Shown in pieces: positions 8,731-49,822 of a stretch of 64,000 nucleotides of DNA. The stretch is from assembly GCA_905250025.1 (NCBI GenBank), contig CAJNOJ010000390.1, positions 1 to 64,000 of the forward strand, written 5' to 3'. This stretch comes from Adineta ricciae (Eukaryota > Rotifera > Eurotatoria > Adinetida > Adinetidae). Made by a program: the position numbers and the translations under genes. Within the stretch, counting starts at the first letter, position 1. Each line of letters begins with the position of its first letter. The notes beneath the pieces were generated by a model, which searched no databases, was not told where the DNA came from, and saw nothing but the letters and a program-made list of their open reading frames with translations.

Positions 8731-8741
8731 TACTCTTATAT
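8731..8741 (-). promoter_or_regulatory. TATA-like element of the cathepsin L gene
   Basis: Minus-strand ATATAAGAGTA about 70 bp upstream of the cathepsin start codon, at a spacing suitable for a core promoter. Supported only by sequence and position. Confidence 0.4.
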
Positions 8742-23302: not shown

Positions 23303-23758
23303 TAATGACTATGAACTGTTTTTCTTCCATTACATTCAGTTAATGTCTCGACTCTTGCAAAGTCGATCGTTTAGGATTTTGTTTCGGAAACCCAATAAAT
23401 GAAACATATTGCACTCATGAAATTCATAGCAGCCTAATCTCGGAAAGCGTTTGGAATTGAATTCATACTTGCCAAGATACTTTGCAGTTGTAAATATTAG
23501 ATAATGTTCTTTTCAAACAAGTAATTACGTTTTTTGCTTTATATGACAACGAAATAAGATTGATGACTCACGGCGTGTTATAAACCTTTTCTAACGCACG
23601 TGGAAGATAGTATTACGTATTGTAATACTGTGCACCTATGTTGTCTGTTCTTATGCACGATTTTGAATATGATCACGTCATGGATGATCGCTCTCACTGT
23701 TAAATTCCCGTTATCAATATACCTATGATGAAGATAAGATAATGTAAATATTCACTTG
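23303..23758. other. Intergenic, 5' flank of exchanger gene (haplotype A)
   Basis: AATAAA at about 23393 for the preceding gene. A GTATTACGTATTGTAATAC near-palindrome lies at 23609-23627 and is kept at 37348 in the B copy. Confidence 0.45.
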
Positions 23759-27150: not shown

Positions 27151-27255
27151 TTTTTATATATGTTTATTTTTAAATAGAAGTTTTTTGTAATCTCTATATA
27201 TATCTATCGGTTATCTACAGCGAAAAAATGTCAATCGATCAAAGTTCATCTGAAG

Positions 27256-28884
27256 TTATTTTAGTTTAGCTAATATACCAATATTGATTGTATTCTCCGG
27301 TGCTAATTTAATGTTCACAGCTGCGCCTGGATAAAGACTTTTCAGTATAGCATAGAAATACAATGGCCAACGTCGAATCCAACTAGCCCATCCTACAGTT
27401 GATACTTTAATTGTTTCATTTGGTGTGAATATTGTCACTTTTGATTCGTCGTCAGGTATGGGTAAATTGAATTGTGTTCGAGCAAGTGTTAAAATATCAA
27501 AGGGTTTGATACGATTTTCAGAATAACCGTATAATGCTGTAAGATGAAATATACCTTCTCCATATTGTTTTACAGCGAGCCGTTTATCATCTTCGATTGT
27601 GGACGATTTGATGTGTTCGATACGAAGAAATATGATAACTTGCGGCACTGAATGTGTTCGACTTAAGAAATTTTCAAAAACATGTGGTGTATGTTTTGTT
27701 GAGCTTGTCAGAAAGCAACCAACACTTGGTGTAATGACAGCTGATATAGTATGATCAGGAATATTATTTTGCTCTTGAATATAAGATGAAATTGCAGATG
27801 TTCGTTTAATTGGCACATTTTCTACTAGACGTACTTGGCTTGCAACTCTAGGCAAAGATCCTTTATTTTTCACGTCGATGTCTTCGTCATCGGATTCTGA
27901 GTCGATTTCATCGTGAAAATCAATTCGACTAGCCGTTGAAATTATAGGAAGATCATTGACAGAGCTATTCGAGTTTTGTCGTGTATTCGACTCAGATAAT
28001 CCAAGTCGTAATGCTAAAGTGTGAAGGCTCGTTGTCTGTGAATGAATCTTGAGAAAACGTCGCAAATTCAATTGGCCAAAAAACCAACAAAATCCAAATA
28101 TAAAGAAACCTGTGGAAATAACAATAGCCACCCATCCTCCAGTAGGAATCTTAGTAGCATTCGATGCCCATGTGTATCCATCGATAATAAGAAACAAACC
28201 GAACGGTAAAATCATATACCATGGTTTATGCCATGTGTAATGCATAACACACATATATAATATTGTTGTAAATACCATGACAGTGCAAACAGTCACACCA
28301 TAAGCATTCGTAATACTCGCATTCGTACCAAATCCAATGATAATGATAATAGTCAAAATCATTAAAATATAATTGACCGTTGGAATATAAATTTGACCGA
28401 TGATTGTCTTTGATGTATGATAAATTTTAACAGGAACTGAACATTCCATACCAATGGCTTGACTGACCAATGAGAAGCTACCAGTAATGATTGCTTGCGA
28501 AGCAATGATTGTTGCTACAGTAGCCAGAACAACCATAGGCCAATGGAACCAATTTGGTACTGCATGATAAAATGGATTGTCAACTAGCGATGGATCAACG
28601 ATTAATAATGCTCCTTGACCTAAATAATTGAATAAGACACCGGGAAATACCACAAAGAACCAAGCTGCACGAACTGGCCATCTTCCGAAATGACCTAAAT
28701 CAGCGTACAGAGCTTCGAGACCAGTGACGGATAAAAACACACCACCGATTTGATAGAAACCACGAGTCTTTTCGATCAACAGATAATCAAACGCTTCCCA
28801 TGGGTTAAACGCTTTCAAAATAGAAGGCTTATATGTTATACGCCAAATACCAATGATAAACAAAGTTACAAACCAACAAACCAT
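27256..28884 (-). CDS. KUP/HAK potassium transporter, C-terminal part (haplotype A)
   Basis: The frame of 542 residues covers the part from FGPIMVCWFV to the end (stop at 27256) and is cut by the N at 28885. Its N-terminal part is at 48962-49822 with 204 identical overlapping bases, so the haplotype A gene is whole when the two pieces are put together. Helices GFYQIGGVFLSVTGLEALYADLGHFGR are typical of KUP. The long cytoplasmic tail has an acidic stretch (SESDDEDID). See the complete B copy for the full description. Confidence 0.92.
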   Translation of the reverse strand: MVCWFVTLFIIGIWRITYKPSILKAFNPWEAFDYLLIEKTRGFYQIGGVFLSVTGLEALYADLGHFGRWPVRAAWFFVVFPGVLFNYLGQGALLIVDPSLVDNPFYHAVPNWFHWPMVVLATVATIIASQAIITGSFSLVSQAIGMECSVPVKIYHTSKTIIGQIYIPTVNYILMILTIIIIIGFGTNASITNAYGVTVCTVMVFTTILYMCVMHYTWHKPWYMILPFGLFLIIDGYTWASNATKIPTGGWVAIVISTGFFIFGFCWFFGQLNLRRFLKIHSQTTSLHTLALRLGLSESNTRQNSNSSVNDLPIISTASRIDFHDEIDSESDDEDIDVKNKGSLPRVASQVRLVENVPIKRTSAISSYIQEQNNIPDHTISAVITPSVGCFLTSSTKHTPHVFENFLSRTHSVPQVIIFLRIEHIKSSTIEDDKRLAVKQYGEGIFHLTALYGYSENRIKPFDILTLARTQFNLPIPDDESKVTIFTPNETIKVSTVGWASWIRRWPLYFYAILKSLYPGAAVNIKLAPENTINIGILAKLK

Positions 28885-28885
28885 N
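28885..28885. other. Single-N scaffold join (A to B)
   Basis: One N separates the KUP gene of haplotype A from the NHL gene of haplotype B in the opposite sense. The two sides are unrelated, and each continues elsewhere in the window, so the join is an assembly product. Confidence 0.95.
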
Positions 28886-29205
28886 GGCTAAAAGATGCGA
28901 AACAAGGAATTGTTGTCGCTGGTGGCCATGGAAAGGGTAGTTCTTTATCACAACTGTCCAAGCCTTATGGAATCATAGTCGATCAATATGAAACTGTATA
29001 TGTGACTGATTCTGACAATCACCGGGTAATGTGTTGGCCTAAAGGCGCCAAAGAAGGAAGTATTGTTGTTGGTGGCAACGGAAGGGGACAATATGCGAAT
29101 CAGCTCAGCTATCCATTTGGTTTATCCATTGATGGACAAGAAAATCTTTACGTCGTAGATCTCTTCAATAATCGAGTACAAAGATATGCTGTCAAACGCA
29201 GCTGA
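28886..29205 (+). CDS. NHL propeller, C-terminal end of ART-NHL gene (haplotype B, partial)
   Basis: Starts directly at the join, in the frame WLKDAKQGIVVAGGHGKG, and holds the last two and a half NHL repeats. Only 3 substitutions separate it from 15526-15845, all synonymous by my reading. The ART part of this allele is outside the assembled piece. Confidence 0.88.
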
Positions 29206-29815
29206 AAGATAGGTTGATGTGAGTGAGTAACAACGATTTAGAAACGTCCATACTCTCACCTTTATTGTACGTTCATGGTTAAAAAGAATCTAATAAAAGG
29301 TTATTCAGTTGAAAAACTATCAGCTTCTCTCGACCTATACAAACCGAATTGAAGAAGTAAGAAAGTTTCTTTACTATGAAAATGTGGATTCATTCACTGT
29401 CGTAATCAACTCGTTCGGAATATCAACGGATACATGTGTTCCCTAATAGATAGTTGTTGTCTTTTTCTTCCATTAACGTTTTATGGTGCATTAATGTTGT
29501 CGGTAATGTGTGTGTCATCCTTAGAGATAAGTTCACGGTTATTTTAGAATGTGATGAAAGGCTGTTTGGTTGAAGAACTAAATACTTGAATCATGCAAGA
29601 GCTTTTATGACGACGATATTACGCTCTTTCATAAATATGTCCGTTAGATAATTTCTAGATAGGCGGAATCACTTGAATACCTTATTTTAGTTTTATCTTC
29701 AAAATCTTTCTGTGAAGTGCGAACCAATTTCCTTTTCTTTTTTTCAAATACCTTGGAAGTAAGGAGAAAACTGACTAGAAAATATTCAACAGTTGTCTTT
29801 TCTTCTAACTGGAAT
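29206..29815. other. Intergenic between NHL-ART and PAN protein genes (haplotype B)
   Basis: Counterpart of 15846-16506; about 50 bases shorter. No gene seen. Confidence 0.5.
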
Positions 29816-30805
29816 ATGAAATTCATGATTTTATTATTTCTGTTGACTATTATTAATCAGTCAATAGCACAGAATACACGTATGATAATATTATCAATTA
29901 TTGACAATACACAATATCGATGTGTTGACCCGCATTGTTCGCCAATTACAGTTACTTTGACTTCAAATATGCAAGCTTGCCAAGCAGCTTGTTTAATTAA
30001 TACAGATTGTCGGACAGCGATTTTTGATCAATCAAATCTTCAATGTGAATTATTCATTGATATTGTTCGACAATATGGTCAAATGATAACAAATGAAAAT
30101 GTTGTAACTATGACTGCGATTGACAATCGACAATTATCAGCTAGTAAGTATCGTCAATACAATGCTGTTTTTTTCTCACACAACTTTGTTTATAGTAAGC
30201 GAAAGAAACTGGATCATCAATGGTGATGCCGAAACGGGTCCATGTGCATCAGATAGTAGTGTTATAAGTCCAACTGATTGGAATCATAATGGAACAGTCA
30301 CTCAAGCATACTATAATAACACATACTCAACTCACAAATCTACAGAACCAGGACCAAGGTGAGACATAAAGTTGGATAAATTATTTGATGAAACTTTTAT
30401 TTTCCTAGTGATCGTGGTAATTGTCATTTCTATGGTCAGGCTAGCTCCACGACAACAATGTGGCAAAAGCAAAACTTCACAAGTTATTTCTATTCATTAA
30501 TTGATGATCAAACAGTTCGGTTCAATTTTTCAGCGTGGATTGGCGGCGCTGGTAATCAAGATGACGCTGTTGAAGCTTCACTGATGTTTTTCAATCAATC
30601 AAATCAAATGATCGGAAATGCGACGACTATTGGACCAGTACGAGCTGCAGATCGTGGTAATGTGACCTCACTGCTTTTTCGACAAGCGAATGGACAAGTA
30701 CCAAGTGGCACTCGCTCTTTTGAAGTTTTAGTTAAATTTACTCGCTCGAGTGGCACGTATGATAACGGTGCTATCGATAACATTGTTCTTATCTTGAATG
30801 AATAA
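29816..30805 (+). CDS. Secreted PAN/apple-like plus beta-sandwich protein (haplotype B)
   Basis: Exons 29816-30143, 30196-30358, 30409-30805 have exactly the lengths of the A exons (328, 163, 397 bp) and give 295 residues. The first donor is GTAAGT here and GTAACT in A, which supports the intron call. Signal peptide MKFMILLFLLTIINQSIA, PAN-like cysteines (CVDPHC, CQAACLINTDC, LQCELF) and the NGDAETGPC domain are retained. Intact. Confidence 0.8.
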
Positions 30806-31279
30806 TTAAAAGCGATATTAATGTAAAACTTTCCGAAGTAGTTTTATTGTAGGGTGATATAAGCAGAACCATCTGTGCAATAGATAAAACTGGATAAATA
30901 TGAACGAAGCTCGATGAAATTACTTGAAGATAGATATTATTAGGTAAAAGTGTCTGAAGCCAACGGATAATAAAAAGTAGGTGAGGCTTGAGTGTTGTTC
31001 TTGATTTACAGCAGTGCTCTCATCAAATCCACAGTTCAACAAAAAAAACTGTATCCAGTGGATCAAGCACTATTTACACATTATTTGTGACTATGAATAA
31101 TACTATCTATATTGAAAACATTAAACAAGATAGAATCGTTACACTGACGACGAACTCAAGTGAATAATCATCCGATCGTATAGTGTTACTTTTTTGTGAA
31201 GTAGGGTGCATTCTCAACTAATTCATAAAATATTCAAATGAATGCGCCGAATCGCTACGGCATTTAATACTGGAGAGAA
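30806..31279. other. Intergenic between PAN protein and VC0807-like gene (haplotype B)
   Basis: Counterpart of 17499-17911 with several private indels, including about 50 extra bases near 31155-31205. No gene seen. Confidence 0.4.
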
Positions 31280-32179
31280 TCCATCAATGTAAGTATGAGT
31301 ATTCCTATATCAGGCACGAATCCCTCGAAAGTGGAAGTGTCTCCTATAATCCAAAGGGAAAGATTCGATCGTTGCTCTAGTGGACATCTTATATTTCAAC
31401 GTCTTTCATTTAATTGTTTCATGAATGCTATCGATTTTTTACGTTCTTTCGATACGCAAATAGTTGTTAATGCACCATGTATTGCCACCATCACACCTAA
31501 AATAACGTGTGCATAGATAAAAATTTGCGCGACGCTTAGATGGATAAGAACAAGAATTAATCGAACAACAAATTTCAAGAAAGGACCGACAACCCAAATG
31601 GCCATTATAACATAGCACGTTCGACAAAAAGACGAGCAGTTTGTATATAGCCAATCATACACTTGTGCTACCTCTTGTTTATCAGCTGATTTTGTGTCGT
31701 TGGTAGTAAATCTTGATAGAAATAGTATGTCATTGCCACCATCGACATCGATGGCAGCAGCATCGGATAGGAATTAATGTAACAGCAAAAATAATTGAAA
31801 CAACACCCGTAATCAGGGTTTTTTTCTGGCAACAGTACAGTATCATTCTTTGTAACAAGTGCAACAACCGCCGAAATAACGAAGCCAGCTAGAATAAGAA
31901 AACCAAGTGCGTCGAACGTTCGTGATATGAAGGCTTAAAAAAAATCACGACCAGCGGTGGTACACCTGAGATTAATAGGACGTAAATTGTTGAAAGTTGA
32001 TTTCGTAACACAAAAAACATTACAAGCGGAAGAATAAGATAGAACACGGCAGTGAGAAGAACACGTGGAATATGATGTTTGAATGTATGCCATAGAGAGA
32101 ATTTGATTTCCGGTAATGATTCACGTTGTTGCCCTGATCGTTGAATAGATTGTGTGTGATATCCAGGATCTGCAAGCAT
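31280..32179 (-). pseudogene. VC0807-like multi-pass membrane protein, frameshifted (haplotype B)
   Basis: From the minus-strand ATG at 32179 the reading gives MLADPGYHTQ, then helix RVLLTAVFYLILPLVMFFVL, then STIYVLLISGVPPLVVIFFK. A one-base loss near 31934 shifts the frame; the next frame continues RTFDALGFLILAGFVISAVV and ALVTKNDTVLLPEK. A run of extra A near 31822 shifts it again to TLITGVVSIIFAVTLIPIR, and a third shift near 31750 leads to FCRTCYVIMAIWVVGPFLKF and VVRLILVLIHLSVAQIFIY. The order LLISG(V/I)PP, DALG, TG(V)..IIF, FRRTC..W and VRL..LSV is what I know from bacterial VC0807-type and fungal membrane proteins of unknown function. Shifts could also be sequencing errors in homopolymers. 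Confidence 0.55.
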
Positions 32180-32185
32180 GGTCAC

Positions 32186-33191
32186 TGCTAGCTGACTTTC
32201 TGAAAAAGAATATAGAATACTGAATCGAAACTTTCGTTGGGGACAATACCTAACTACATGTTTGAATCAAAATCATGTACATACACGATAATTACGACTG
32301 ATAGAGGCTACCTTCAAGCAATAATGTAATATTTTTTATTAACATGAGGAAAACAGCAATTAGATGTAAAATTCGTCAAAAAAGAAGACGCCAATCGCTT
32401 CTCGCCTTTGAATTCTCAATAATGTGACGATAATTATATGCTTATTGAAAACAGAATACTTTCATATTTTTCAAATGATATTATTTTATATATGTTCCGT
32501 GACGACGAAAATCACCGACGTTCATGCTAACAATTCCATTGATATTTTCGCCAACTACTCATTTTACAGGTGTCTTTTGTGTCCTTTTCGATGCATATAT
32601 CATTAGAGATAGGCGGTATTGATTTTGTAATCAACGACCACACATTATTCATATACAATCAACTTCATGATTTAATACATATCATGTCTCCTTGAGAAAG
32701 TGTGGGTACGGACGTCTTGTATTCAAACATGCACTCACGTCCATCTTCCATTAATAATGAGGAGCAAAGCCTCACTCTCACATTGTGATTTAAAAGAACA
32801 TTTTTTGATACTTTCCTAGTTTACTTCTACTATTTGTTTGTGTTGATTTATTTTCTTTTAACCGGAAAAAAATCAGATATAATAATAATGTTTCAAGTAT
32901 CCTATCAAGTTTCTTGAAGAAATGTTGATTGTCATGAATCTTAGATTCTCATCAATAACGGAAAGAATTGGAAATGATGCTTAACATATTTGAAATGTAA
33001 TTCAATCAAGAGCTTATTTCCACTGAAAATAATTATTTGCTTTTCTTCATTGAAATACATTGTTGTCAGACGGTGTGTTTTATTATAACGTCACTACTTA
33101 TCAAAAGTACTTCTTCTACTCAAAGATCTTTTAACGCAAATATTGAAAAATAGACCAGATTTTTCTTCAGCAGTCATTTTCGAAAGGAAAA
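32186..33191. other. Intergenic, 5' flank of GPCR (haplotype B)
   Basis: Counterpart of 18236-19208, colinear with small changes. No gene seen. Confidence 0.5.
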
Positions 33192-34136
33192 ATGAATTCA
33201 ACAACCGATCTAGTTTCTCTTTCAAATACCACCTTCAGTATTGAATTCTGGCATATTCCACTAGATATTTTCAATATCGTCTGTCTGATTTTGGTCATTA
33301 TATTGTCATTACTATTTTTATTAATCATTATCTTTGATAAAACATGCCATACCGTTCCGATGTTATTCGTAGCAAATTCCTGTGTTATTGGAGTGTTACA
33401 TGCAGGTAATATGTTTTGGATCAGCATACTTCGATTGCAAAATGATCTTCAAACGGCTCAACATCAGGATCGCTCGTGTATCTTTCAAGCTTATCTTCGA
33501 TATGCTTTCTGTGCTATCGTTATCTGTTCATTTCTTCTTCAAGCCGTCTATCGATATTTGATTGTTTTCTATCCGAAACATGTCACTTGGCTCTCATTAA
33601 GAAGTCAATTCATCCTTATCGTTCTCACGTGGCTCTATGGATTAACATTTCCCATGGCTTTTATGTTTACTGGCGACATCAGTTACATTGCTGATATTGA
33701 TGTTTGTGACGTTCCTCTTCGACTTTCTTTTGCATTAATTTTTCTCTCACTATGTGTCTATTCAATTCCACTCTCATTGGTGATGTTTATCTATCTGAAG
33801 CTGATTCGTTATGTTAAGATGATGAACCAACGTGTGACACCGGCGAATGTTTTATTTCGTATTCAGCGTGAATTGAAAATGATCCGACAGATAGTTATCA
33901 CAATAATCGTTCTCGTCCCAATCTGTATTCCATATACAATCTTCTTTATTTTGTCGTTTTTCACCGCTCTCCCAGTGTATTACTTTCGGATACTGTTTGC
34001 ATTTGCGGTTGGATCATTCTTATCTACAATGCTTACCGTCTTCAGATTTACCAACCCGTTGAAATTATCAGTGATGAAGAAACTCAATATACGGTCGAAA
34101 ATACTTATTCCAACAGTAAGAATAACCAAAGTCTAG
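33192..34136 (+). CDS. Rhodopsin-like seven-TM receptor (haplotype B)
   Basis: 314 residues, same length as the A copy. The receptor signature is kept: QAVYRYLIVFYP after TM3, VLVPICIPYTIFFIL in TM6. At the TM7 position it reads FRFTNPLKL, closer to the canonical NP motif than the A copy (TDPLKL). About 15 substitutions separate the two, several in helix 1-2 and TM5-7. Both alleles are intact. Confidence 0.85.
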   Translation: MNSTTDLVSLSNTTFSIEFWHIPLDIFNIVCLILVIILSLLFLLIIIFDKTCHTVPMLFVANSCVIGVLHAGNMFWISILRLQNDLQTAQHQDRSCIFQAYLRYAFCAIVICSFLLQAVYRYLIVFYPKHVTWLSLRSQFILIVLTWLYGLTFPMAFMFTGDISYIADIDVCDVPLRLSFALIFLSLCVYSIPLSLVMFIYLKLIRYVKMMNQRVTPANVLFRIQRELKMIRQIVITIIVLVPICIPYTIFFILSFFTALPVYYFRILFAFAVGSFLSTMLTVFRFTNPLKLSVMKKLNIRSKILIPTVRITKV

Positions 34137-34335
34137 ATCAAGTCCGAAAGCTTGATGATCATTTTTCTGTAGTCAAATACTGTTTGAAACATCAAAGCCA
34201 TTCTGTTGAATATCTCCACTTGTTCATTGATGATTTGTGTGATTATATTTTGACAAACAACACAAATCGGACATGACTACAATTTATTGCAAAGGTCTAA
34301 TAAACATAGAAAAAGAATCATTTTAATGGATGCAC

Positions 34336-35593
34336 TCAAAAATAAACTGTCAGATTAGGATTTGCGGCGAAAATCGATTTCAAACGCGCCTTTTCTGTAT
34401 CATTAATATTGTTAAATTGGACATCGAGGCCAGTCAATTTCTTCATTTTCACTATTTGTTCTGCTGGCAAAGTCGTCAGCTGATTGCCATATAAAGCAAG
34501 ATAGCTAAGTGATTCGCTAAGATTGATAATTTCAGGAGGAATGTACTGAATTTGATTAAATGGAAGAAATACTACACTTAAAGGCGATCGTGACAAGGCA
34601 AGTGTCGACAAATCTGTAAGTTGGTTATAGGACATATCTATATTAGCCAAAGTTTCGCTTAGTAAGAGTGGTGCGGGGAGTTGGGTGAAGCAATTTTTGC
34701 TGAGATCAAGGTAGGTGACACCTCTGGTAAAATTTCGTGGGAAAGCCGACAGACAGTTCAATCCTTGAAATCTCAAGTCTTTCAGGTTTGTCATGTAGGT
34801 GAATTGCCAAGGTAAAACCGACATACCGTCACCAGTGATACCAAGAGTGGTTAAGTTCGTTAAGTCTGCAAACGGACCTAAGTTGACTAAATGTGAAATA
34901 TCAATTGTTAAAGATGACAAAGTCGGATTTAAATTTCGAAAGAAATCTTCCGGTATTGTAGTAAATTGTCCGTTGAGAATACCCAAATGATTCAAAGGAA
35001 GAATGCTCAGAAAGGATGGCAGCTCAGCTAAAGGTGCGTGGAGAGTCAGGTCTGTTAAACTAGGTAAAGCAGCTAGAGCTCCTGTTATGTACGTAATTCG
35101 GATCGCAAGTAAATACAGAGTGCGTAACAATTTTAGTTCACCAATTGTCTCCGGAATGTCTTTACCGTCAACATACGATAACGAAAGATACGTTAAATTG
35201 GTAAGTTTGCCAATTTCATAAGGAATAGGCCATGTATAACCCGATGTTATATAACCGAAAATATAAAGGGACTGTAAATGAGTGAGGCAATAGACTTGTA
35301 ATGCTGTTGGAACAAGGTCGAGTGCCAAGTCATACACTTGGTTTTGTGCATTGAGACGGGCACAAGCAGGATTTTGCTGACACGAAGAAGAATTATCCAA
35401 TATGGTAACTTTAAACGGAAGCGAATTCAGTACATGACGGTCATCGGAGTATTGACTACAATTTAATGTGGGTTCAAAGGCACTTCCTACGTACGATCAT
35501 TAATTATTTAAAAGAACTTGGACAATAGCAATGTTGTTGCTTACCTTCTACGAAATGAAATGATAGTACCAGTAATAACAACGACGCGAACAT
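34336..35593 (-). CDS. Secreted leucine-rich repeat protein (haplotype B)
   Basis: Exons 35545-35593 and 34336-35486, intron 58 bp; same exon lengths as the A copy (49 and 1151 bp) and 399 residues. Signal peptide, N-terminal cysteines and about ten LRR units are retained; changes cluster in the solvent side of the repeats (for example LLNGRFTT to ILNGQFTT). Confidence 0.87.
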
Positions 35594-36248
35594 TGCAGTT
35601 TTGCTACTCTTTGTTGCAAAACACGAGAAATGAATGGTAAAACATTTCTCTCTACTATCTCGGTGAAGAATATCGACGTCTTATCGACACCTACCTGCAA
35701 ACAATTGCCGTACTTTTTATAACTTCGAACAAAGGAATTTGTGTTAATAGTTGAAAATATAGGACAGTTTCAGGTCAAAAATAATCTCTCACAGTGAAAC
35801 TAATATGCTTAAAATAGAAATAACCATTAATTGAGGGTGTGGAGAAGTGCCGGATAAAATAAAAGAATACTGCGAAAATCTAACTTGTAAACATGATGAC
35901 GCTACAGTTCGATCGGCTCGTCCTCTTGTTACTGGATGCAACGATATTGATTGATTGCGATGGCGAAGATCAACGCTTTCTCTTTTCTCTTCATTACTGT
36001 TAAGATTCTATATAGAAAAAATTCCCAATTCTCGTGTACATGATGTACGAGGGCGCCATCTTCTTGAACAAGTATAGTTTATACATACAATTCTCGACGA
36101 ATCCAATCAGCGTTTCAGTTTGTATAGATTGTCTATTGTTTCAATAGTTCTTGAATATAACGTTCAATCTACAAATCAGGCGCGAAATATTTGTTCATTA
36201 ATTCATTTGTACGATACAAAGTCAGTCATAGAACAAGAAACAAGTCAG
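35594..36248. other. Intergenic between divergent genes (haplotype B)
   Basis: Lacks about 280 bases present in A (21905-22185) and carries about 45 private bases near 35972-36016. No gene seen. Confidence 0.45.
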
Positions 36249-37043
36249 ATGGCTAACGGTGATACAGTCGATTTCAAGATAGCAGCATTTCAGAAATTCA
36301 AATCGTTAGAATGGGATTATTTCCAATCATTATCAGATGATAAGAAGAAACTTCTCAGTCCCGATGGTCGATTAAAAAATTATAATCCATTTCATTTGCT
36401 GGAATGTAAGTTTTCGTTAGGAATAAACTCTATTTGTTATCTTTACTTTAGATGGCGAAATCCTTGCTACATTGTTCGGTATTAAACCATGTACTCTTTT
36501 AGCACATTATGTCATGCATGACTATGCAACAGGTCTCGTTGAGAAGGCATTAAAACCAATATTTGACGAGTTTCAACTCGAAAAAGAAGGATTCGAATTA
36601 TGGAAGTTGAAACCACCACTCACAGAAGATTACAAAGGCGGTTGGATCTTTGCGAATAAAGTAAGCATGACGATTTGTCTCGCCGAACGTCTATTTCTTG
36701 ACGTCTTTAGAAACACGAACGGTATTCACTTGTAAAGCAAACTTTTACCACTAATTCATCATCTATCAACATGATCGATATCGGAGGTGCACTTGGTTAT
36801 CCACTTCCATATGGTGAATATACAATTCAGTATATAGACGAGACAGAATCGAAGGAACGTAACGCATGTTGTGTGCCAATGGTAGAATACACCGTTGGTG
36901 AAGGAAATTTTGGCACTATTATACGGCATTTCGATCAATATTCAACATTATGGAAAAAACTTGGCAGAAATCTGACGATTGATTTTTCCGAACATCCATC
37001 ACTGGAGAAATGGTTTATGGATATAAAAAATGGACAAATCTAA
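36249..37043 (+). CDS. Conserved protein of unknown function, 232 aa (haplotype B)
   Basis: Exons 36249-36405, 36452-36660, 36711-37043 with the same lengths as in A (157, 209, 333 bp). Here the alternative acceptor near the third exon seen in A (TTTACAG) is absent, which shows that the GTCTTTAG acceptor is the real one. Protein differs from A at a few positions (for example IAAFQ for IKAFQ, IDETES for IDDTES). Intact; family not recognised. Confidence 0.78.
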
Positions 37044-37501
37044 TAACCACTATAAACTGTTTTTCTTCCACTACATTCAGTTAGTGTCTATGGGTTCTCG
37101 TAAAGTCGATCGTTTAGGATTTTATTTCGGAAACCCAATAAATGAAACATATTGCACTCATAAAAATCATAGCAGCCTTATCTCAGAAAGTTTTTGGAAT
37201 TGAATTAATATTTACCAAGACACTTTGTAGTTGTAGGTATTAGATACTGTTCGTTTCAAATAAGTTATTAAGTCTTTTGCTTTATATAACAATACAATAA
37301 GATTGACGACTCACGGCGTGTTATAAACCTTTTCTAACGCACGTGGAAGATAGTATTACGTATTGTAATACTGTGCACTTATGTTATCTCTTCTTATGCA
37401 CGGTTTTTAATATGATCACGTCATGGATGATCGCTCTCACTGTTAAATTTCCGTTATCAACACACCTATGATGAAGATAAGATAATGTAAACTTTCACTT
37501 G
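37044..37501. other. Intergenic, 5' flank of exchanger pseudogene (haplotype B)
   Basis: Counterpart of 23303-23758; the GTATTACGTATTGTAATAC near-palindrome is kept at about 37348. Confidence 0.45.
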
Positions 37502-40443: not shown

Positions 40444-40483
40444 TTTTCACATATGTTTATTTTTAAATAGAAGTTTCTTGTGA

Positions 40484-40517
<34 letters not shown>
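40484..40517. repeat. (TC)n(AT)n microsatellite
   Basis: A TC run followed by an AT run between the convergent exchanger and KUP genes. The A copy has only a few units at 27192-27206, so the tract is expanded in haplotype B. Confidence 0.85.
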
Positions 40518-40564
40518 GGTTATCTACAGCGAAAAAATGTCAGTCGATTAAAGCTCATCTGAAG

Positions 40565-42850
40565 TTATTTTAGTTTAGCTAATATACCAATGTTAATTGT
40601 ATTCTCCGGTGCTAATTTAATGTTCACAGCTGCGCCTGGATAAAGACTTTTCAGTATAGCATAGAGATACAGCGGCCAACGTCGAATCCAACTAGCCCAT
40701 CCTACAGTTGATACTTTAATTGTTTCATTTGGTGTGAATATTGTCACTTTTGATTCGTGATCAGGTATGGGTAAATTGAATTGTGTTCGAGCAAGTGTTA
40801 AGATATCAAAAGGTTTGATACGATTTTCAGAGTGACCGTATAATGCTGTAAGATGAAATATACCTTCTCCATATTGCTTCACAGCGAGCCGTCTATCATC
40901 TTCAATTGTGGACGATTTGATGTGTTCGATACGAAGAAATATGATAACTTGCGGCACCGAACGTGTTCGAGTTAAGTAATTTTCAAAAACATGTGGTGTG
41001 TGTTTTGTTGAACTTGTCAGAAAGCAACCAACACATGGTGTAATGACAGCTGATATGGTATGATTAGGGATATTATTTTGCTCATGAATGTAAGACGAAA
41101 TTGCAGATGCTCGTTTAATTGGCACATTTTCTACTAGACGTACTTGGCTTGCAACTTTAGGCAAAGATCCTTTATTTTTCACGTCGATGTCATCGTCATC
41201 GGATTCCGAGTCGATTTCATCGTGAAAATCAATTCGACTAGCCGTTGAAATTATGGGAAGATCATTGACGGAGCTATTCGAGTTTTGTCGTGTATTCGAC
41301 TCCGATAATCCAAGTCGTAATGCTAAAGTGTGAAGGCTCGTTGTCTGTGAATGAATCTTGAGAAAACGTCGCAAATTCAATTGACCAAAAAACCAACAAA
41401 ATCCAAATATAAAAAACCCCGTGGCAATAACAACAGCCACCCATCCTCCAGTAGGAATTTTAGTAGCATTCGATGCCCATGTGTATCCATCGATAATAAG
41501 GAACAATCCGAACGGTAAAATCATATACCATGGTTTGTGCCATGTGTAATGCATAACACACATATATAATATTGTTGTAAATACCATGACGGTGCAAACG
41601 GTCACACCATAAGCATTCGTAATACTCGCATTCGTACCAAATCCAATGATAATGATAATAGTCAAAATCATTAAAATATAATTGATTGTTGGAATATAAA
41701 TTTGACCGATAATTGTCTTTGATGTATGATAAATTTTAACAGGAACTGAACATTCCATACCAATGGCTTGACTGACCAATGAGAAGCTACCAGTAATGAT
41801 TGCTTGTGAAGCAATGATTGTTGCTACAGTAGCCAGAACAACCATAGGCCAGTGGAACCAATTCGGTACTGCATGATAAAATGGATTGTCAACTAGCGAT
41901 GGATCAACGATTAATAATGCCCCTTGACCTAAATAATTGAATAAGACGCCGGGAAATACAACAAAGAACCAAGCTGCACGGACTGGCCATCTTCCGAAAT
42001 GACCTAAATCAGCGTACAGAGCTTCGAGACCTGTGACGGACAAAAACACACCACCGATTTGATAGAAACCACGAGTCTTTTCGATCAACAGATAATCAAA
42101 CGCTTCCCATGGGTTAAACGCTTTCAAAATAGAAGGCTTATATGTTATACGCCAAATACCAATGATAAACAAAGTTACAAACCAACAAACCATAATGGGA
42201 CCAAAAGCAACACCAATCCTTGATGTTCCCCATCGTTGTGCGAGGAAAAGTAGAACAATGATAATTATACTAATTGGTACAACCCAAGAGTTTAATTGTG
42301 ATGCTTCTACAGCTACTCCTTCGACTGCTGATAGAACAGATACAGCAGGTGTCAATGCTCCGTCACCAAGTAGCATTGCTGCGGCTACTAATGCAATCAG
42401 TGTTATTCCTCGTTTTACCTTTGGACTCAATTTAACCTTTTCATCTGTTAATAAGCCACACAGAGCAAATGTTCCACCTTCTCCATGATTATCGGCGATT
42501 AAAATAAATGTTGCATATTTCAAACAGACCGACACGATCAAACTCCAAATAATCAAACTGATAGCTCCAATACATTGTGATTCTGTCGGTTGGTAAGTGA
42601 ATATCGTATTCACAACATAGAGTGGCGATGTTCCTATATCCCCAAAAATAACACCCAATGCACGGAGGGTTAAACTGAAGAATAGTTTCGGATTTTTACA
42701 TGGTGTAATTTCAGATACTAAAACATGATCGTCATTTGTTGATTGTTTTATCTTAGATACTGCTGTTCGAATGAGATTAGGTGATGGAGCGGATTCTTCT
42801 TGACGATTAGAATCATTTTTGCTTATATCAACAACTAAACGAGGTAACAT
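40565..42850 (-). CDS. KUP/HAK/KT potassium transporter (complete, haplotype B)
   Basis: Single-exon frame of 761 residues from the first ATG at 42850 (MLPRLVVD). The family signature is complete: GVIFGDIGTSPLY at about 66-78, GEGGTFALC at about 123-131, LGDGALTPAVSVLSAVEG at about 161-178, then about ten more helices and a cytoplasmic C-terminal domain ending INIGILAKLK. Function by family: high-affinity K+ uptake, probably H+ coupled, at the plasma membrane. KUP/HAK transporters are known from bacteria, fungi, plants and some protists and are not part of the usual animal set, so horizontal acquisition is likely. The 5' UTR may hold an intron (donor at about 42899). Convergent with the exchanger gene. 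Confidence 0.95.
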   Translation of the reverse strand: MLPRLVVDISKNDSNRQEESAPSPNLIRTAVSKIKQSTNDDHVLVSEITPCKNPKLFFSLTLRALGVIFGDIGTSPLYVVNTIFTYQPTESQCIGAISLIIWSLIVSVCLKYATFILIADNHGEGGTFALCGLLTDEKVKLSPKVKRGITLIALVAAAMLLGDGALTPAVSVLSAVEGVAVEASQLNSWVVPISIIIIVLLFLAQRWGTSRIGVAFGPIMVCWFVTLFIIGIWRITYKPSILKAFNPWEAFDYLLIEKTRGFYQIGGVFLSVTGLEALYADLGHFGRWPVRAAWFFVVFPGVLFNYLGQGALLIVDPSLVDNPFYHAVPNWFHWPMVVLATVATIIASQAIITGSFSLVSQAIGMECSVPVKIYHTSKTIIGQIYIPTINYILMILTIIIIIGFGTNASITNAYGVTVCTVMVFTTILYMCVMHYTWHKPWYMILPFGLFLIIDGYTWASNATKIPTGGWVAVVIATGFFIFGFCWFFGQLNLRRFLKIHSQTTSLHTLALRLGLSESNTRQNSNSSVNDLPIISTASRIDFHDEIDSESDDDDIDVKNKGSLPKVASQVRLVENVPIKRASAISSYIHEQNNIPNHTISAVITPCVGCFLTSSTKHTPHVFENYLTRTRSVPQVIIFLRIEHIKSSTIEDDRRLAVKQYGEGIFHLTALYGHSENRIKPFDILTLARTQFNLPIPDHESKVTIFTPNETIKVSTVGWASWIRRWPLYLYAILKSLYPGAAVNIKLAPENTINIGILAKLK

Positions 42851-45214
42851 AAACAATTATCTAAAGTTTTGTAGTGTGTAATTACAATTGTTTTTACCTG
42901 TTTCCATAGAACGGTATCAAGCAATGTCAAATTGAAATATATTCATAGTGCATTTACTTGTTTCGTTAGTAATGAACAGGTTAAAAGCACAACTGACGTA
43001 TATGTAGCTCTCATTGATGATGCGCATCAATGCCTCGTGCATGATCAACGAATGGGTATGGTCGTGTTTCTTTCGTATTTTGGGCGTTACCCGTCCTTGA
43101 TCGATGAAAGTAATTTCACATTAAATGAAATTGATTTTTCTATTCATACAGAAAAAGGTCATCAATAACGCCCATTTCGCTGATGACTATCAAATGTAAA
43201 ACTGAGTAAATCTATATCAACAATCATTTATTGCGCTATCGATATTAAAATCAGATTTACACTTATGTTCAAAGCAAAAGAAAAACATTGCGTAATGTTT
43301 TTAATCATAACTATCTAATTGAACAGACGTGCACCGTCTTAATTAACATTCGCATCGTCAATGCCGCAGGATAATTTATTTTGATTGGCTGCTCGTTGTA
43401 ATCCATAATGTGATCGATGGTGGACAGGTTTATCATCATATTTCTCTCCGAAGAGGATCAAGTGCCATCGGATCGTTCCCATCTGATTGTATTGGAGAAA
43501 ATTTTACATCACCGACTGACAATGGAGCAATTGACAAGTATTTAACATTATAATTGTCAGTTGATTGCATATCGATGTCAATTTGATATTGTTCGAAAAT
43601 CTGGCTTCACCCAGTATAAGTGGTGATCAAATTGTAATGCGTCATATCCGTTCGATCCGAGTAATACTCATCATTATCAGAAGTGACTTTTGCACGTAAT
43701 ACACCGTAAATTTTGCTTCTAGAAAAACCGAAGCTGGCTAAGATTTTTTCATCCATCAAAAAAATGAGTAATTCAGCCGAACATATCAACAGGTGTCTTA
43801 CACAGAAAGAGAAAAATATAGTATGACCGTGAAATATACGTGAAATAAGCACGTGGAAATTTTTTTGTCATAGAGCAAACAAAACGCAATAATTGTCAAC
43901 GAAAGATCAATGCATAAAAAGGACTTTATGTTAAAATATACATGTAATAATTAGGATAATTAAGTAACTCATATCATAGCCAATCATTCTTTTACGGTTA
44001 AACCTTAGATTGGATTTATTAAGAAAAAGAGTCTTGCAAACAGACGTTGTCTGTGTATTTGTTGATTTTTATTTCTTTGAATAATTAAAGCACTGTGAAA
44101 ATGAAAAGCAATATGTTTTCGTCACATAGTTATGACCTACACACGTCACAAATGGAAGCAGATTTCAATGGTCTTTCTCCGTAACTAGTTTCTAACCTGT
44201 TCAAACAGATTTTTATGTCACTACTTAAACATGTACAGAAAGGAAAAGATATTCTGAAATATGACCTGAATAATAAAGACTGACGACGGATAGAATCAGT
44301 GTCGGTCCTCAATCTGTACATGAAATAATCCGATTAGAATCAACAGAGTGTCAATGTGAGTGAGGATGGATGTGAGTCGACGGCTCTGTGCACCATTACT
44401 CTACGAACTCTTTTTGAATTTTTCTCTTTTCGTTTCTGTCAGTCATTTTATGTGACACAATAAATTATTTTTGAAAAAAGTATAGTAGAGAAAGCCGAGA
44501 TGTGGTCGTCTTTCGTTTCTACATAGGTGCTGAATAAACATGTGAGTTTAAATCGTAATGTTTTTTATTTGCCGAGCAAGTCGTATTTTTTACTTTCTTC
44601 TTCAGTAAGCTTCACTTGTAAAGTATGTATCCAACGCAAATAATCATAACCATTCGTAGAAACGAAAACTATCTGATACGTACGTTAGTCAATACTGTAG
44701 TAATAGTGAAGATATAGGGTTCGCGTAAGGTGCAGCGAAACGAAGTTTTTTTTTGTACCGATCGTGAACCGAAAAGTAACACTCATCTCATCTCCATAGT
44801 GATTGTTTGCTATTTGACTTTCTTTGGATTTTTTTCAAACGAAAATGAATTGAAGCGGATGTGGGCAGTATGTCGCTTTTTTATCCTCGCGCTCACTCAC
44901 ATCCGCCTTTTCTGGTGCCCTAAGCTGCAGACATTTGTTAGGGAAAAGTTCTCCTGTCTGATATACGAAAAAAAGCTTTATAGTTTTAGCGAAGTGTTTT
45001 CTATAATGTTTTTGAGACGTTGTATGTCTATACAGATCTACTGCGTAAAAAGAAGTTCTATAATGATTTTGTTCTGCGGATAGTTGTGGCTATTGGTAAA
45101 AAACATAAGTACTCATAACTTCACTCCCACCCACATCCACATACTCACCCTCAAGATGGATGTTTCAGTTCGGAGAAATACTTGATATAATATCAAATAT
45201 ATTTTAATGTGTAG
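42851..45214. other. Long intergenic region between KUP and ART genes (haplotype B)
   Basis: Divergent 5' flanks of both genes. No frame with recognisable product; short open frames differ between the haplotypes. Compared with A (49823-51896) it has extra segments near 43325-43610 and 44760-44840. Shortly before the ART start it carries CCCACCCACATCCACA and CACCCTCAAG. Confidence 0.45.
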
Positions 45215-46153
45215 ATGACCCTTGACGACACCGCAAAAGAAACGTCTCCGCTTCGATTCTCGGACGTCGGTGCGTTGCCCAATCGAATGTTCGCACCGAT
45301 CGAAGGATATGAACATATGCCACTTGTTTCACTTGAGGAAGCTGTCGAGCCTCTCGTTAACATTGTGCCCAAAGTACAACGCAATGTTTTTATAGTAAAA
45401 CAGAATTGTCAACATCCAGAAGATGGTCTATCGAGTGATGAATCTGCCTCAATTATGCTGTACACCTTCGAATCGAAACCACATGAATCTTCATTGTATG
45501 TCATTCTGAATGCAGCTTTGCGCTTGGAAAAAAGAGAACAATTAGTTCCATGGTTTCTTTATCTCCGACTTATTTTGACAGCACTGGGAAAGCTTCCATC
45601 AGAGCGTCGTTTTGTTGTTCGAGGGGTCAAAGCCGATTTAAGAGCAGAATATCCAAAAGGAAACACTTTTATTTGGTGGGGATTCTCGTCGTGTACCTCA
45701 ACTGTTGAAGTGCTTGAATGTGAAGGCTTTTTTGGCAAAACGGGAACAAGAACCTTATTCCAAATTGACTGTTATACAGGAAAAGATGTAAAAAATCACT
45801 CGTTCATCCGAGCAGAGGAGGAAATTCTTCTGCTTCCTGCAAGACAATTCCAGATTACATCGTGTCTCGATTCTGGTAACGGACTTCATATAATACAGTT
45901 GAAAGAAATAAAACCATCATTTCCCCTGCTCGAACTGTCGGAAATACCAAATCCAGTATTACTACCTAAGAAAGACTCGACCATTGGACCACAAATCAAC
46001 GTGGAGTCTTCCAAACCAGCACCAGCACTTGCATCAACATTGCCAATCGAAAAACACAATTCAGGTGAGTCAGTATTTGTTGTAATTTCATATGCGTACA
46101 CGCATACACTCTATCTCGAAGTAAACCTTCTAAGATCAAGAATATGCAATTGA
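45215..46153 (+). CDS. ADP-ribosyltransferase domain exon (haplotype B)
   Basis: Frame from ATG 45215 (MTLDDTAKE). ART domain of the R-S-E class: Arg about 136 in FVVRGVKA, Ser about 158 in WWGFSSCTST, E201-x-E203 in RAEEEILLLPA. It is related to the ART of the NHL gene (shared DESASIMLYT, SSLYVILNAALR patterns). A splice donor GTGAGT at 46065 ends the conserved part at codon phase 1; beyond it A and B diverge quickly, so residues after HNS are probably intronic read-through. The donor is in phase with an acceptor at 47557 before the MORN frame, giving a possible fusion. No signal peptide. Confidence 0.85.
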   Translation: MTLDDTAKETSPLRFSDVGALPNRMFAPIEGYEHMPLVSLEEAVEPLVNIVPKVQRNVFIVKQNCQHPEDGLSSDESASIMLYTFESKPHESSLYVILNAALRLEKREQLVPWFLYLRLILTALGKLPSERRFVVRGVKADLRAEYPKGNTFIWWGFSSCTSTVEVLECEGFFGKTGTRTLFQIDCYTGKDVKNHSFIRAEEEILLLPARQFQITSCLDSGNGLHIIQLKEIKPSFPLLELSEIPNPVLLPKKDSTIGPQINVESSKPAPALASTLPIEKHNSGESVFVVISYAYTHTLYLEVNLLRSRICN

Positions 46154-47557
46154 AATGCAGATCTTTTTCCCTGCAGTATTTTTAGTAACTATGCCCGAGG
46201 TCCGTACAATGTGCCCTAGGAGAATAATTTCGTTAGTTAGGAATAGCACACTAAGAGGAAAAAGAGAAAAAAAGAACAAATAAGAGTGAAGGAAGAAAAG
46301 TAACAACAAACCAAAACGTTCGTATTCCTTTTCAATCGAAACTCCGAACTATCATAAGTTTTCAAAAATACTTCCATAGTTTCAGAACGTTTAGAAGGCG
46401 ACAACATTTTGTATATGTAAATATGAATATTTTCGAACTATTCATGAGTCGTTTTGTGATACATTTATATCAGTATGAAAATTGAATAAGGCGACGAAAT
46501 TGCGAAAACAAGTAGTTATTAAGTTAAGCAAAACTAAAAAATGTCTATGGGTACCTTTGCCGCTTTTCAAGTTTAGAGAGAAATGAAACCATTTGATAAA
46601 ACCTAATGAAGTCTTGAAGAGCACAGTAAAAAATTTCCACCGATTTGGAATAACATTTCGCAGATGTCCTTAATTTCAACAGATGAAAAAAATTTGCTCT
46701 AAAATATCTTGAGATGAAAGCAAGATTAGAAGTATGTTGTTCAAGCACATCCAATGATTCATCTTAAAGCAAACAGAGTAAGATTATTGAATGTCTATAA
46801 TACATGTATTCTTTTTCAAACTTTTGAATACCAAGAAATAACTTAATATTGGAAATGTAGCTTTGTCTCCTCTTCAGATGATGTGGACAGTATGTGTAAA
46901 CTAATAGGAGTCTCTTCTTGTATCTAAACGCAGTTAAATGATAAGTGTGGATGCCATATTTTTATCTAATCTTGATTTATCATTGAAAATTCTTTGAACG
47001 ACTTGATTGCCTCTATATAAAGCATGGGTTTTCATTTCTGGTGTAGGATTTGAATTAATATAGCGATATATGATCATTGCAGTTCGTAGATCATCGGGAT
47101 GAATAGACTGATACGAAACACTAACCAAACCGGCAGATCGATTTTTTATGAGCTCGATAGATATTATATGACTCCTTAGAGTTCATCTTGCTATCATACA
47201 TTCTTTTAAAAGTGAAGACTAAACTACTTGGATAATACTATCATTTGTACGTTTGTCTAGTCCATGAGATAATTTATCAGCTGATTTCCTTAGAAAAGAT
47301 CGCAAAAAAGACTAATTTCTTTTGAAGTATCCAATTAATGTATTTCTTCAACGTGAAAATTTGTTGATTAGGTTTGATACATTTAAAAATAGGTGTCCTT
47401 CGTTACGTGAATTAAGTCAAACAGTTCGTAAAGAATGCAGGATTCGTGCTAAGAAAAAAACTTCTTTCTCATCTGACTTTACCCAATTACTATAGCACTA
47501 ATGTCAATATACTAACTACTGGCGAAGATTTAATATAAAGCTGCACTATGATTATAG
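46065..47557 (+). other. Putative long intron or intergenic spacer, ART to MORN (haplotype B)
   Basis: 1493 bp, versus 1127 bp in A. It is far longer than all other introns of the window. Contains the B-only insertion 46960-47169. Near 47328-47500 a plus-strand open stretch (PSLRELSQTVRKECRI) is preserved in B but broken by about 83 extra bases in A; it may be an old exon. Confidence 0.45.
46960..47169 (-). mobile_element. Haplotype B-only 210-bp insertion with ATAT duplication
   Basis: A reads GCCATATGACTCC without interruption (53462-53474), while B has about 210 extra bases bounded by ATAT on both sides (46956-46959 and 47166-47169). The insert is open on the minus strand across its length (SAGLVSVSYQSIHPDDLRTA, then NQVVQRIFND), suggesting a piece of a coding exon. 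No terminal repeats are evident, so the mechanism is unclear. Confidence 0.6.
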
Positions 47558-48960
47558 TGACCGATGGCTATGGATCTTATACATCACCGGACGGCGGTCA
47601 TTATGAAGGTGAATTCAAAGACGGAGAAATGCATGGTCGTGGTACATATAGATTTAGTGACGGCGATACATATGACGGTGGCTGGGAACATGACTCAAAA
47701 TGTGGCTATGGTATTTATACATGGACCTCCGGTCAACGCTACGAAGGACAGTTTAAAGATGACAAGAGAAGTGGTCAAGGAACTCAAGTGTTCGATGATG
47801 GACGAACATATGTCGGAGAATGGGTGGATGATAATATGTCAGGTTACGGTGTTTGTACGTGGTCGGATGGTGGTCGATACGAGGGTCAATTTCAGGATGA
47901 TAATCGACATGGGCAAGGAACACATGTATTTGCCAATGGATGTAAATACGTTGGTGAATGGAAGGATGATACTGTGTGTGGTCAAGGTACATTCACATTC
48001 TCAGACGGTGCTACATATGAAGGTCAATTTCAGAATGGCAACAGACATGGGAAAGGAACACAGATCTCTGCGGATGGTGCTAAATACGTTGGAGATTGGG
48101 TAGAAGATAGTATGACTGGCCAAGGCGTTTATACATGGGCCTCTGGTCAACGCTATGAAGGACAGTTCAAAGATGACAAAAGTCATGGTCAAGGTACTCA
48201 AGTATTCGATGATGGACGAATATATGTTGGAGAATGGAAAGATGATAACATGTCAGGTCACGGTGTTTGTACGTGGTCGGATGGTGGTCGATATGACGGT
48301 CAATTCCAGGATGGTAACAGACATGGAAAGGGTACGCACATTTTTGCAAATGGGTGTAAATACGTTGGTGAATGGGAAAATGACACCATGTGTGGGCAAG
48401 GCATTTATACGTGGCCTGACGGTAGTCGTTACGAAGGTCAGTTCAAAGATGGAAACAGTCACGGACGAGGTACACAAATATTCGATGATGGGCGGATATA
48501 CGTCGGAGAATGGGAGGATGATAAAATGTCAGGGCACGGTGTTTATACATGGGCTTCCGGTCAACGCTATGAAGGTCAGTTTAAAGATAACAAAAGCCAT
48601 GGGAAAGGCACTCAAGTATTCGATGATGGACGAGTATATGTTGGAGAATGGGAAGATGATAACATGTCAGGTCCAGGGATTTGTACATGGTCAGACGGTG
48701 CTACATATGAAGGCCAATTTCAGAATGGCAACAGACATGGGAAAGGAACACAGATCTCTGCGGATGGTGCTAAATACGTTGGAGATTGGGTAGAAGATAG
48801 TATGACGGGCCAAGGCGTTTATACATGGGCCTCTGGTCAACGCTATGAAGGACAGTTCAAAGATGACAAAAGTCATGGTCAAGGTACTCAAGTATTCGAT
48901 GATGGACGAATATATGTTGGAGAATGGGAAGGTGATAACATGTCTGGTCGAGGTATGTAT
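47548..48960 (+). CDS. MORN-repeat protein, truncated by scaffold end (haplotype B)
   Basis: Starts at MIIVTDGYGSYTS if read from ATG 47548, or joins the ART exon at 47558. About 20 MORN repeats of 23 residues alternate between YEGQF and YVGEW types, so the real period is 46 residues (138 bp). The piece ends at the N of 48961; the remaining C-terminus is seen in the A copy. The last 260 bp are almost identical to 48001-48270 of the same gene. Confidence 0.88.
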
Positions 48961-48961
48961 N
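48961..48961. other. Single-N scaffold join (B to A)
   Basis: Joins the middle of the MORN gene of haplotype B to the middle of the KUP gene of haplotype A on the opposite strand. The 204 bases right of it repeat 28681-28884 exactly. Confidence 0.95.
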
Positions 48962-49822
48962 TCTTCCGAAATGACCTAAATCAGCGTACAGAGCTTCGAG
49001 ACCAGTGACGGATAAAAACACACCACCGATTTGATAGAAACCACGAGTCTTTTCGATCAACAGATAATCAAACGCTTCCCATGGGTTAAACGCTTTCAAA
49101 ATAGAAGGCTTATATGTTATACGCCAAATACCAATGATAAACAAAGTTACAAACCAACAAACCATGATGGGACCAAAAGTAACACCAATCTTTGATGTTC
49201 CCCATCGTTGTGCGAGGAAAAGTAGAACAATGATAATTACACTAATTGGTACAACCCAAGAATTTAATTGTGATGCTTCTACAGCTACTCCTTCGACTGC
49301 TGATAGAACAGATACAGCAGGTGTCAATGCTCCATCGCCAAGTAGCATTGCTGCAGCTACTAATGCAAGCAGTGTTATTCCTCGTTTTACCTTTGGACTC
49401 AATTTAACCTTTTCATCTGTTAATAAACCACACAGAGCAAATGTTCCACCTTCTCCATGATTATCAGCGATTAAAATAAATGTTGCATATTTCAAACAGA
49501 CCGACACGATCAAACTCCAAATAATCAAACTGATAGCTCCAATACATTGTGATTCTGTTGGTTGGTAAGTGAATATTGTATTCACAACATAGAGTGGCGA
49601 TGTTCCTATATCCCCAAAGATAACACCCAATGCACGGAGGGTTAAACTGAAGAATAATTTCGGATTTTTACATGGTGTAATTTCAGATACTAAAATATGA
49701 TCGTCATTTGTTGATTGTTTTATCTTAGATACTGCTGTTCGAATAAGATTAGGTGATGGAGCAGATTCTTCTTGACGATTAGAGTCATTTTTGCTTATAT
49801 CAACAACTAAAAGAGGTAACAT
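48962..49822 (-). CDS. KUP/HAK potassium transporter, N-terminal part (haplotype A)
   Basis: From ATG 49822 to the join at 48961, about 287 residues, with GVIFGDIGTSPLY, GEGGTFALC and GDGALTPAVSVLSAVEG. It completes the C-terminal piece at 27256-28884 through an identical 204-base overlap that differs from the B copy at two positions (near 42031-42041). Relative to B there are a few substitutions (MLPLLVVD for MLPRLVVD, SVIIIV for SIIIIV). Confidence 0.93.

What the first reader, a model, noticed from the sequence alone, without database searches (positions are those of the whole stretch)
28681..49165. Window is a misordered mosaic of two haplotypes (A1-B1-B2-A2)
Single Ns at 28885, 39630 and 48961 separate pieces that continue elsewhere. 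28681-28884 and 48962-49165 are identical over 204 bases, while the B copy of that stretch (from 41990) differs at two positions. So 1-28884 and 48962-64000 are one chromosome and 28886-48960 is the homologous copy put in between. Anyone counting genes here would report false tandem duplicates.
Basis: seen in the sequence. Interest (0 to 1): 0.85.

Follow-up and report, generated by a model that had tools for sequence, protein, structure and literature searches.

The report
Two haplotypes interleaved in one scaffold
This stretch of a rotifer genome looks as if it carries a 20-kilobase tandem duplication, but it is almost certainly the animal's two chromosome copies laid end to end by assembly software, so the extra genes should not be counted.

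Summary
The window has three single Ns (28885, 39630, 48961). 28681-28884 equals 48962-49165 without a mismatch; the B copy differs at two sites. A1 (1-28884) and A2 (48962-64000) are one haplotype; B1 (28886-39629) and B2 (39631-48960) are the other, 5.8-6.2% diverged. Joining A1 to A2 gives an open 763-codon K+ transporter frame, as long as B's.

Searches of the whole assembly add stronger evidence. The tested B1 core has two full-length places, both on this scaffold. B's left continuation lies on another scaffold, C503, and stops at a single N. Past the window the scaffold goes on with another B piece: A1-B1-B2-A2-B3, ordered by start position. Three other scaffolds (C479, C475, C525) also hold allele-like copies with a single N between them.

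Correction: N 39630 is no haplotype switch; it joins B1 to B2 in order, about 450 bp missing. The source is probably the bdelloid Adineta ricciae. This is a known artefact class (false heterotype duplication): low biological interest, useful as a warning. No reads were available.

The parts
1..28884 (+). Piece A1, haplotype A; its right end lies inside a KUP-type K+ transporter gene
28681..28884 (+). Right end of A1, identical to the first 204 bases of A2 (unmerged overlap)
28885..28885 (.). Single N, false join A1 to B1 (haplotype switch and jump back of about 13 kb in the locus)
28886..39629 (+). Piece B1, haplotype B, colinear with A 15526-25886; starts inside the NHL-repeat part of an ADP-ribosyltransferase-NHL gene whose 5' part lies on C503
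39630..39630 (.). Single N, in-order join B1 to B2 with about 450 bp missing relative to A 25887-26337
39631..48960 (+). Piece B2, haplotype B, colinear with A 26338-28884 and on to A2 55276; ends inside a MORN-repeat gene
48961..48961 (.). Single N, false join B2 to A2 (haplotype switch and jump back in the locus)
48962..64000 (+). Piece A2, haplotype A; continues to C390:70445, followed by a single N and piece B3 (C390:70447 on)
40565..42856 (-). Uninterrupted B allele of the KUP-type K+ transporter (763 aa, K_trans E 2.2e-160)
27256..28884 (-). C-terminal part of the A allele of the transporter, cut by the contig end; the rest is in A2
48962..49828 (-). N-terminal part of the A allele of the transporter, cut by the contig start
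53864..55795 (+). A allele of the MORN-repeat gene (643 aa); the B allele is cut at 48960
14169..15845 (+). A allele of the ADP-ribosyltransferase-NHL gene (558 aa); the B allele is split between C503 and B1

Best explanation
The window is part of a draft scaffold of a highly heterozygous bdelloid rotifer, most likely Adineta ricciae. The two homologous copies of one locus were assembled as separate contigs and then placed one after another in one scaffold. Shown: two colinear copies about 6% apart; an unmerged exact 204-base overlap between A1 and A2; an open gene frame when A1 is joined to A2; two full-length genomic places for the tested core, both on this scaffold; the left continuation of B on another scaffold, ending at a single N. 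Inferred: a scaffolding step sorted contigs by the position where each starts along the locus (A1 at 1, B1 at 15526, B2 at 26338, A2 at 28681, B3 further right) without noticing that they overlap, and wrote one N wherever it did not merge the neighbours. The result is A1-B1-B2-A2-B3, a false tandem duplication of the kind called false heterotype duplication.
For: Exact overlap bounded by the Ns at 28885 and 48961. A1+A2 gives a 763-codon open transporter frame, the length of B's. Divergence 618 of 10009 sites (6.17%) for A1/B1 and 497 of 8526 (5.83%) for A/B2. Pooled Ks over six gene pairs 0.132, Ka/Ks 0.10-0.24, against a published homologue mean Ks of 0.135 for A. ricciae (PMC5916493, passage seen). 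Window 33150-35500 has two full-length places, 100% (itself) and 95%, both on C390; the remaining matches cover at most 643 of 2351 bases at 65-78% (14 of 14 candidates scored). The B left flank is on C503, 96% to A 14014-15305 and stopping at the single N at C503:27906; its reading frame is open to that N and B1 resumes the same protein about 73 residues on. C390 continues with B3 after a single N at 70446. C479, C475 and C525 show allele-like linked copies with a single N between. Some other single Ns also hide near-exact overlaps: 3 of 13 outside C390 within the flanks held.
Against: No reads were available, so no join was tested directly. The 204-base overlap has only two sites that tell A from B. 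Ten of the 13 single Ns outside C390 showed no overlap or duplication within the flanks held. The SSPACE-LongRead paper says that contigs overlapping a better-scoring contig by 200 bp or more are dropped from a read (passage), which does not by itself predict an A1-B1 link, so the program step is not identified. On C503 the sequence on the other side of the N has a 93% relative on C391 and ends in a dispersed repeat; why that join was made is not explained. No B copy of window 55800-58000 was found. The species name rests on agreement of GC, divergence and assembly size, not on a named record.
Confidence: 0.95

Rival explanations
1. A real tandem duplication of about 20 kb on one chromosome, old enough to have diverged by 6%.
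For: Two colinear copies in the same orientation on one scaffold.
Against: Both junctions between copies are Ns with a cut gene on each side; the copies are staggered (A1, B1, B2, A2, B3), not unit after unit; A1 and A2 overlap exactly and together give an open gene frame; B's left flank is on another scaffold. A real duplication in an assembly that keeps homologues apart would tend to give four places; two full-length ones are found, although alleles of each duplicate could in principle have collapsed.
Confidence: 0.02
2. Real linkage of homologous copies on one chromosome, as once proposed for Adineta vaga as a sign of evolution without meiosis.
For: Linkage of allele-like copies recurs in three more scaffolds and probably in two others, C466 and C154.
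Against: In each of the three where the space between the copies was read, wholly (C479) or in part (C475, C525), a single N lies between them. In the 2018 A. ricciae assembly only 2 linked homologous blocks were found, both tandem, and the authors say that many collinearity breaks span scaffold gaps (PMC5916493 section 9). A later A. vaga assembly showed a single palindrome (PMC7749112, passage).
Confidence: 0.02
3. The copies are homoeologues (ohnologues) of the ancient bdelloid tetraploidy, not alleles.
For: Bdelloids carry such copies, and the transporter has one here: C479 at 71-73% identity.
Against: A and B differ at about 6% of sites, with Ks 0.132, while the homoeologous region is at 71-73% and has its own 94.7% pair. 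The published mean Ks for A. ricciae ohnologues is 1.267 (PMC5916493, passage).
Confidence: 0.01

Closest known systems
False heterotype duplication (term of the Vertebrate Genomes Project; PMC9516828, passages seen)
   Same: Both alleles of a heterozygous region are placed in one assembly as if they were paralogues, here on the same scaffold with assembly gaps between the copies.
   Different: Here several contigs of each haplotype alternate (A1-B1-B2-A2-B3), and the gap is one base long even where two contigs overlap. Read depth, read pairs and k-mers, part of their test, could not be checked.
Linked homologues in the Adineta vaga 2013 assembly, and the two tandem blocks of the A. ricciae 2018 assembly (PMC5916493, section 9 read)
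   Same: Homologous blocks on one scaffold in an Adineta species.
   Different: Most of the A. vaga cases were palindromes (23 of 25); here the copies are tandem. Those authors also suspected scaffolding errors for some breaks.

Membership tests
False heterotype duplication | Two copies at allelic divergence on the same scaffold | tested here: met
   6.17% and 5.83% substitutions; pooled Ks 0.132
False heterotype duplication | Assembly gap between the copies | tested here: met
   Ns at 28885 and 48961
False heterotype duplication | Half read depth over each copy | not testable with these tools
   no reads held
False heterotype duplication | Discordant linked reads or read pairs at the joins | not testable with these tools
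   no reads held
False heterotype duplication | Haplotype-specific (one-copy) k-mers | not testable with these tools
   needs read k-mers
Real tandem duplication | Junction sequenced without a gap | tested here: not met
   both junctions are Ns
Real tandem duplication | Copy number above that of an ordinary two-allele locus | tested here: not met
   two full-length places for window 33150-35500; for 53600-55598 itself and one other copy, also on C390
Adineta ricciae assembly | GC about 35.5%, homologue Ks about 0.135, span about 135.6 Mb, few gap bases in ARIC003 (65 kb) | tested here: inconclusive
   window GC 36.6%, fetched loci 35.1%; Ks 0.132; 130.46 Mb in 1033 contigs held; 85 N in 197,383 unique bases. 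All agree, but no named record was compared

The most novel reading that the evidence does not exclude
Homologous copies really are linked in tandem on one chromosome in this bdelloid, at this locus and several others, so that the genome cannot be split into haploid sets.
Probability: 0.02. Interest if true: 0.8.

Novelty: already known. Interest (0 to 1): 0.22.

Why it matters
Gene counts, gene-family expansions and claims of linked homologues taken from this assembly would be inflated by such joins. In bdelloids that matters more than usual, because linkage of homologues on one scaffold was once read as evidence of evolution without meiosis (PMC5916493 section 9). The small, non-random survey here (C390, C479, C475, C525) suggests that the fault recurs, so the single-N joins of this assembly deserve a systematic check.

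Tried and rejected
Rejected: real tandem duplication, real linkage of homologues, homoeologues (see rivals). Considered and not settled: which program made the order. SSPACE-LongRead sorts contigs by position on reads (PMC4076250, passages) and was used for the 2018 A. ricciae assembly (PMC5916493 section 16). The held genome's low gap content fits the later ARIC003 assembly better (PMC7943196 Table 1, passage), but the assembly section of that paper does not say how A. ricciae was scaffolded. RaGOO, named there for other species, would fit an order by start position; that is recalled knowledge of its behaviour.

Led nowhere: a phage-collection search with window 24000-28884 (two hits of 66.5% over 269 bases to kup genes), Rfam at gathering scores (none), tRNA scan with the bacterial code (none). 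Long queries to the own-genome search dropped expected matches: searches do not list the query's own place, and not the A1 copy either, so absences in those three calls are not used. One search found no B copy of 55800-58000; contigs under about 10 kb seem not to be held (the shortest contig in the list has 10,353 bases), so this says little. The three largest indels between A and B showed no clear target-site duplication by eye, and the inserts matched none of the loci compared except, for one, the same place in C390 (the set compared was the 69 loci). L013 and L019 of C261 showed no homology, but they were hits to different parts of the query. Paper searches were seen as listings; PMC8178825 was seen in passages and not used further.

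Of eight linked pairs asked for, three were fetched (C525, C466, C154; 97.2, 97.6 and 93.2% over 250 bases). C248, C331, C295, C221 and the C503 pair were not examined. For C466 and C154 the stretch between the copies was not read; for C525 43756-45999 and for C475 10422-17961 were not read.
Full report
Observation. The window contains three Ns, each single, at 28885, 39630 and 48961. The last 204 bases before the first N (28681-28884) equal the first 204 bases after the third (48962-49165) without a mismatch; the B copy at 41990-42193 differs at two sites, 28723 and 28732. Self-comparison gives colinear plus-strand blocks: 15526-25886 with 28886-39624, 26338-28884 with 39631-42193, and, in several blocks, 48962-55276 with 41990-48960.

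Which pieces belong together. A1 and B1 differ at 618 of 10009 aligned sites (6.17%), A and B2 at 497 of 8526 (5.83%). A1 therefore is not the haplotype of B1 or B2, and A2 is not that of B2; with two haplotypes this leaves A1+A2 and B1+B2. The exact A1-A2 overlap agrees, though only two of its sites tell A from B. Joined over the overlap, A1+A2 hold a 763-codon open frame of a KUP-type potassium transporter, equal in length to the uninterrupted B allele (K_trans on the B allele, E 2.2e-160). As printed, the A allele is cut in two and its parts lie 20 kb apart. Ks over six A/B gene pairs is 0.115-0.175, pooled 0.132, pooled Ka 0.019, Ka/Ks 0.10-0.24: two copies under purifying selection at an allelic distance.

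The join at 39630. B1 ends near the equivalent of A 25886 and B2 begins at A 26338. The order is correct and about 450 bp of B are missing inside an ion-exchanger-like gene. This N is not a haplotype switch.

The rest of the assembly. The window is bases 1-64000 of C390 (84,278 bases) in an assembly of 130,461,839 bases in 1033 contigs. Window 33150-35500 has two full-length places, itself and A1 19168-21513 at 95%, both on C390; the other 13 matches cover at most 643 of 2351 bases at 65-78%. The MORN region likewise matches only itself and the B2 copy, on C390. B's left continuation lies on C503 in reverse: C503:27907-29201 is 96% identical to A 14014-15305, and C503:27906 is a single N. The frame of the ADP-ribosyltransferase-NHL gene is open up to that N, and B1 begins about 73 residues further along the same protein. 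The sequence on the other side of that N has a 93% relative on C391 and ends in a dispersed repeat; it was not followed. To the right, C390 has a fourth single N at 70446, and what follows matches A2 62048-68948 colinearly at 83-92% identity including gaps. Still further right, C390:81412-83280 (B3) has its best partner, 88-94%, on C612, a candidate for the continuation of A; it was not followed. The scaffold therefore reads A1-B1-B2-A2-B3. The start positions on the locus (1, 15526, 26338, 28681, and for B3 a first homology at 62048) rise in the printed order; the first 1.2 kb of B3 have no colinear counterpart in A2. No B copy of 55800-58000 was found.

Recurrence. The homoeologous transporter region on C479 (71-73% to the window) has its own pair of copies, 94.7% alike, with a single N at 27397 between them. 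On C475 two copies are 93.7% and 89.5% alike in two blocks, and the first copy's homology ends exactly at the single N at 9239. On C525 two copies are 97.2% alike over 250 bases, with a single N at 48356 between them. C466 and C154 have pairs 97.6% and 93.2% alike over 250 bases, unread in between. These contigs were noticed because searches gave two hits in each, so they are no random sample. Among 68 loci (197,383 unique bases) there are 18 gaps, 16 of them single Ns, 3 of these in C390. Of the 13 others, 3 show an overlap of 194-235 bases at 99.5-100% at or close to the two sides of the N, and 10 show none within the flanks held. A single N in this assembly can thus stand for an overlap that was not merged. 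The shorter flank was 440 bases or less for 7 of the 18 gaps, so overlaps and duplications may have been missed.

Organism. Gene content (ADP-ribosyltransferase-NHL and MORN genes, a KUP transporter; the link of these to bdelloids is recalled), GC 36.6% in the window and 35.1% in the loci, and Ks 0.132 fit Adineta ricciae: GC 35.5-35.6% and homologue mean Ks 0.135 (PMC5916493, passages; PMC7943196 Table 1 passage) and allelic heterozygosity 5.5% (PMC7953838, passages). The density of N (85 in 197,383) fits the 65 kb of gaps reported for ARIC003 (135.6 Mb) better than the 2.1% reported for the 2018 assembly. No named record was compared, so the name is an inference.

Mechanism. Several contig ends lie in repeats or unmerged overlaps: B1 starts in the NHL part of its gene, B2 ends in MORN repeats, A2 ends in a dispersed palindromic repeat (C390:70268-70445), B3 starts in a short tandem repeat. 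A scaffolder that sorts by start position and writes one N at unmerged joins would give the printed order. SSPACE-LongRead is described as sorting contigs by alignment position and merging or inserting N (PMC4076250, passages), but its filter against overlaps of 200 bp or more does not by itself predict an A1-B1 link, and the program used here is not established.

Comparison with what is known. PMC9516828 (passages) calls this false heterotype duplication and lists gaps between duplicated pairs on one scaffold among its marks; that mark is met here, while read depth, discordant reads and k-mers could not be tested. PMC5916493 (section 9) reports for A. ricciae only two linked homologous blocks, both tandem, and warns of scaffolding errors at gaps. 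The finding is a clear case of a known artefact, not new biology.

Noticed in passing
39396-39398: The B allele of the exchanger-like gene has a stop codon (TGA) where A has CGA, about 230 bases before the N at 39630: a possible nonsense allele on one homologue, or a sequence error.
   Followed up: partly
31633-32203; 21911-22190; 43357-43601: Insertions or deletions of about 577, 277 and 245 bp distinguish the haplotypes. No clear target-site duplication was seen by eye, and the inserts matched no other place in the fetched loci compared.
   Followed up: partly
C390:70268-70445 (L069:6268-6445): A perfect 178-base palindrome at the end of A2; similar sequence of up to about 350 bases occurs in more than ten contigs, like a short hairpin transposon.
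   Followed up: no
6251-7227: A mariner-like transposase fragment (resemblance recalled; ORF 6327-6803) with many relatives at 68-93% in the assembly.
   Followed up: no
13503-13962: A 59-base tandem array (4.5 copies) beside a G-rich stretch, with an inverted copy; related arrays on C121, C89, C152 and C711.
   Followed up: no
1-614: The start of A has two matches on C475 (95% and 92%) that are also about 93.7% alike: three similar copies, which two haplotypes alone do not explain unless it is a repeat.
   Followed up: partly
28735-29205; 47539-49008; 48857-49828: Open reading frames run through the Ns and fuse unrelated genes; an automatic annotation could report them as chimeric proteins.
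   Followed up: yes
C503:52206-53311 and 15714-16856; C248, C331, C295, C221: More contigs with two similar-scoring hits each; possible further interleaved haplotypes, or gene families.
   Followed up: no
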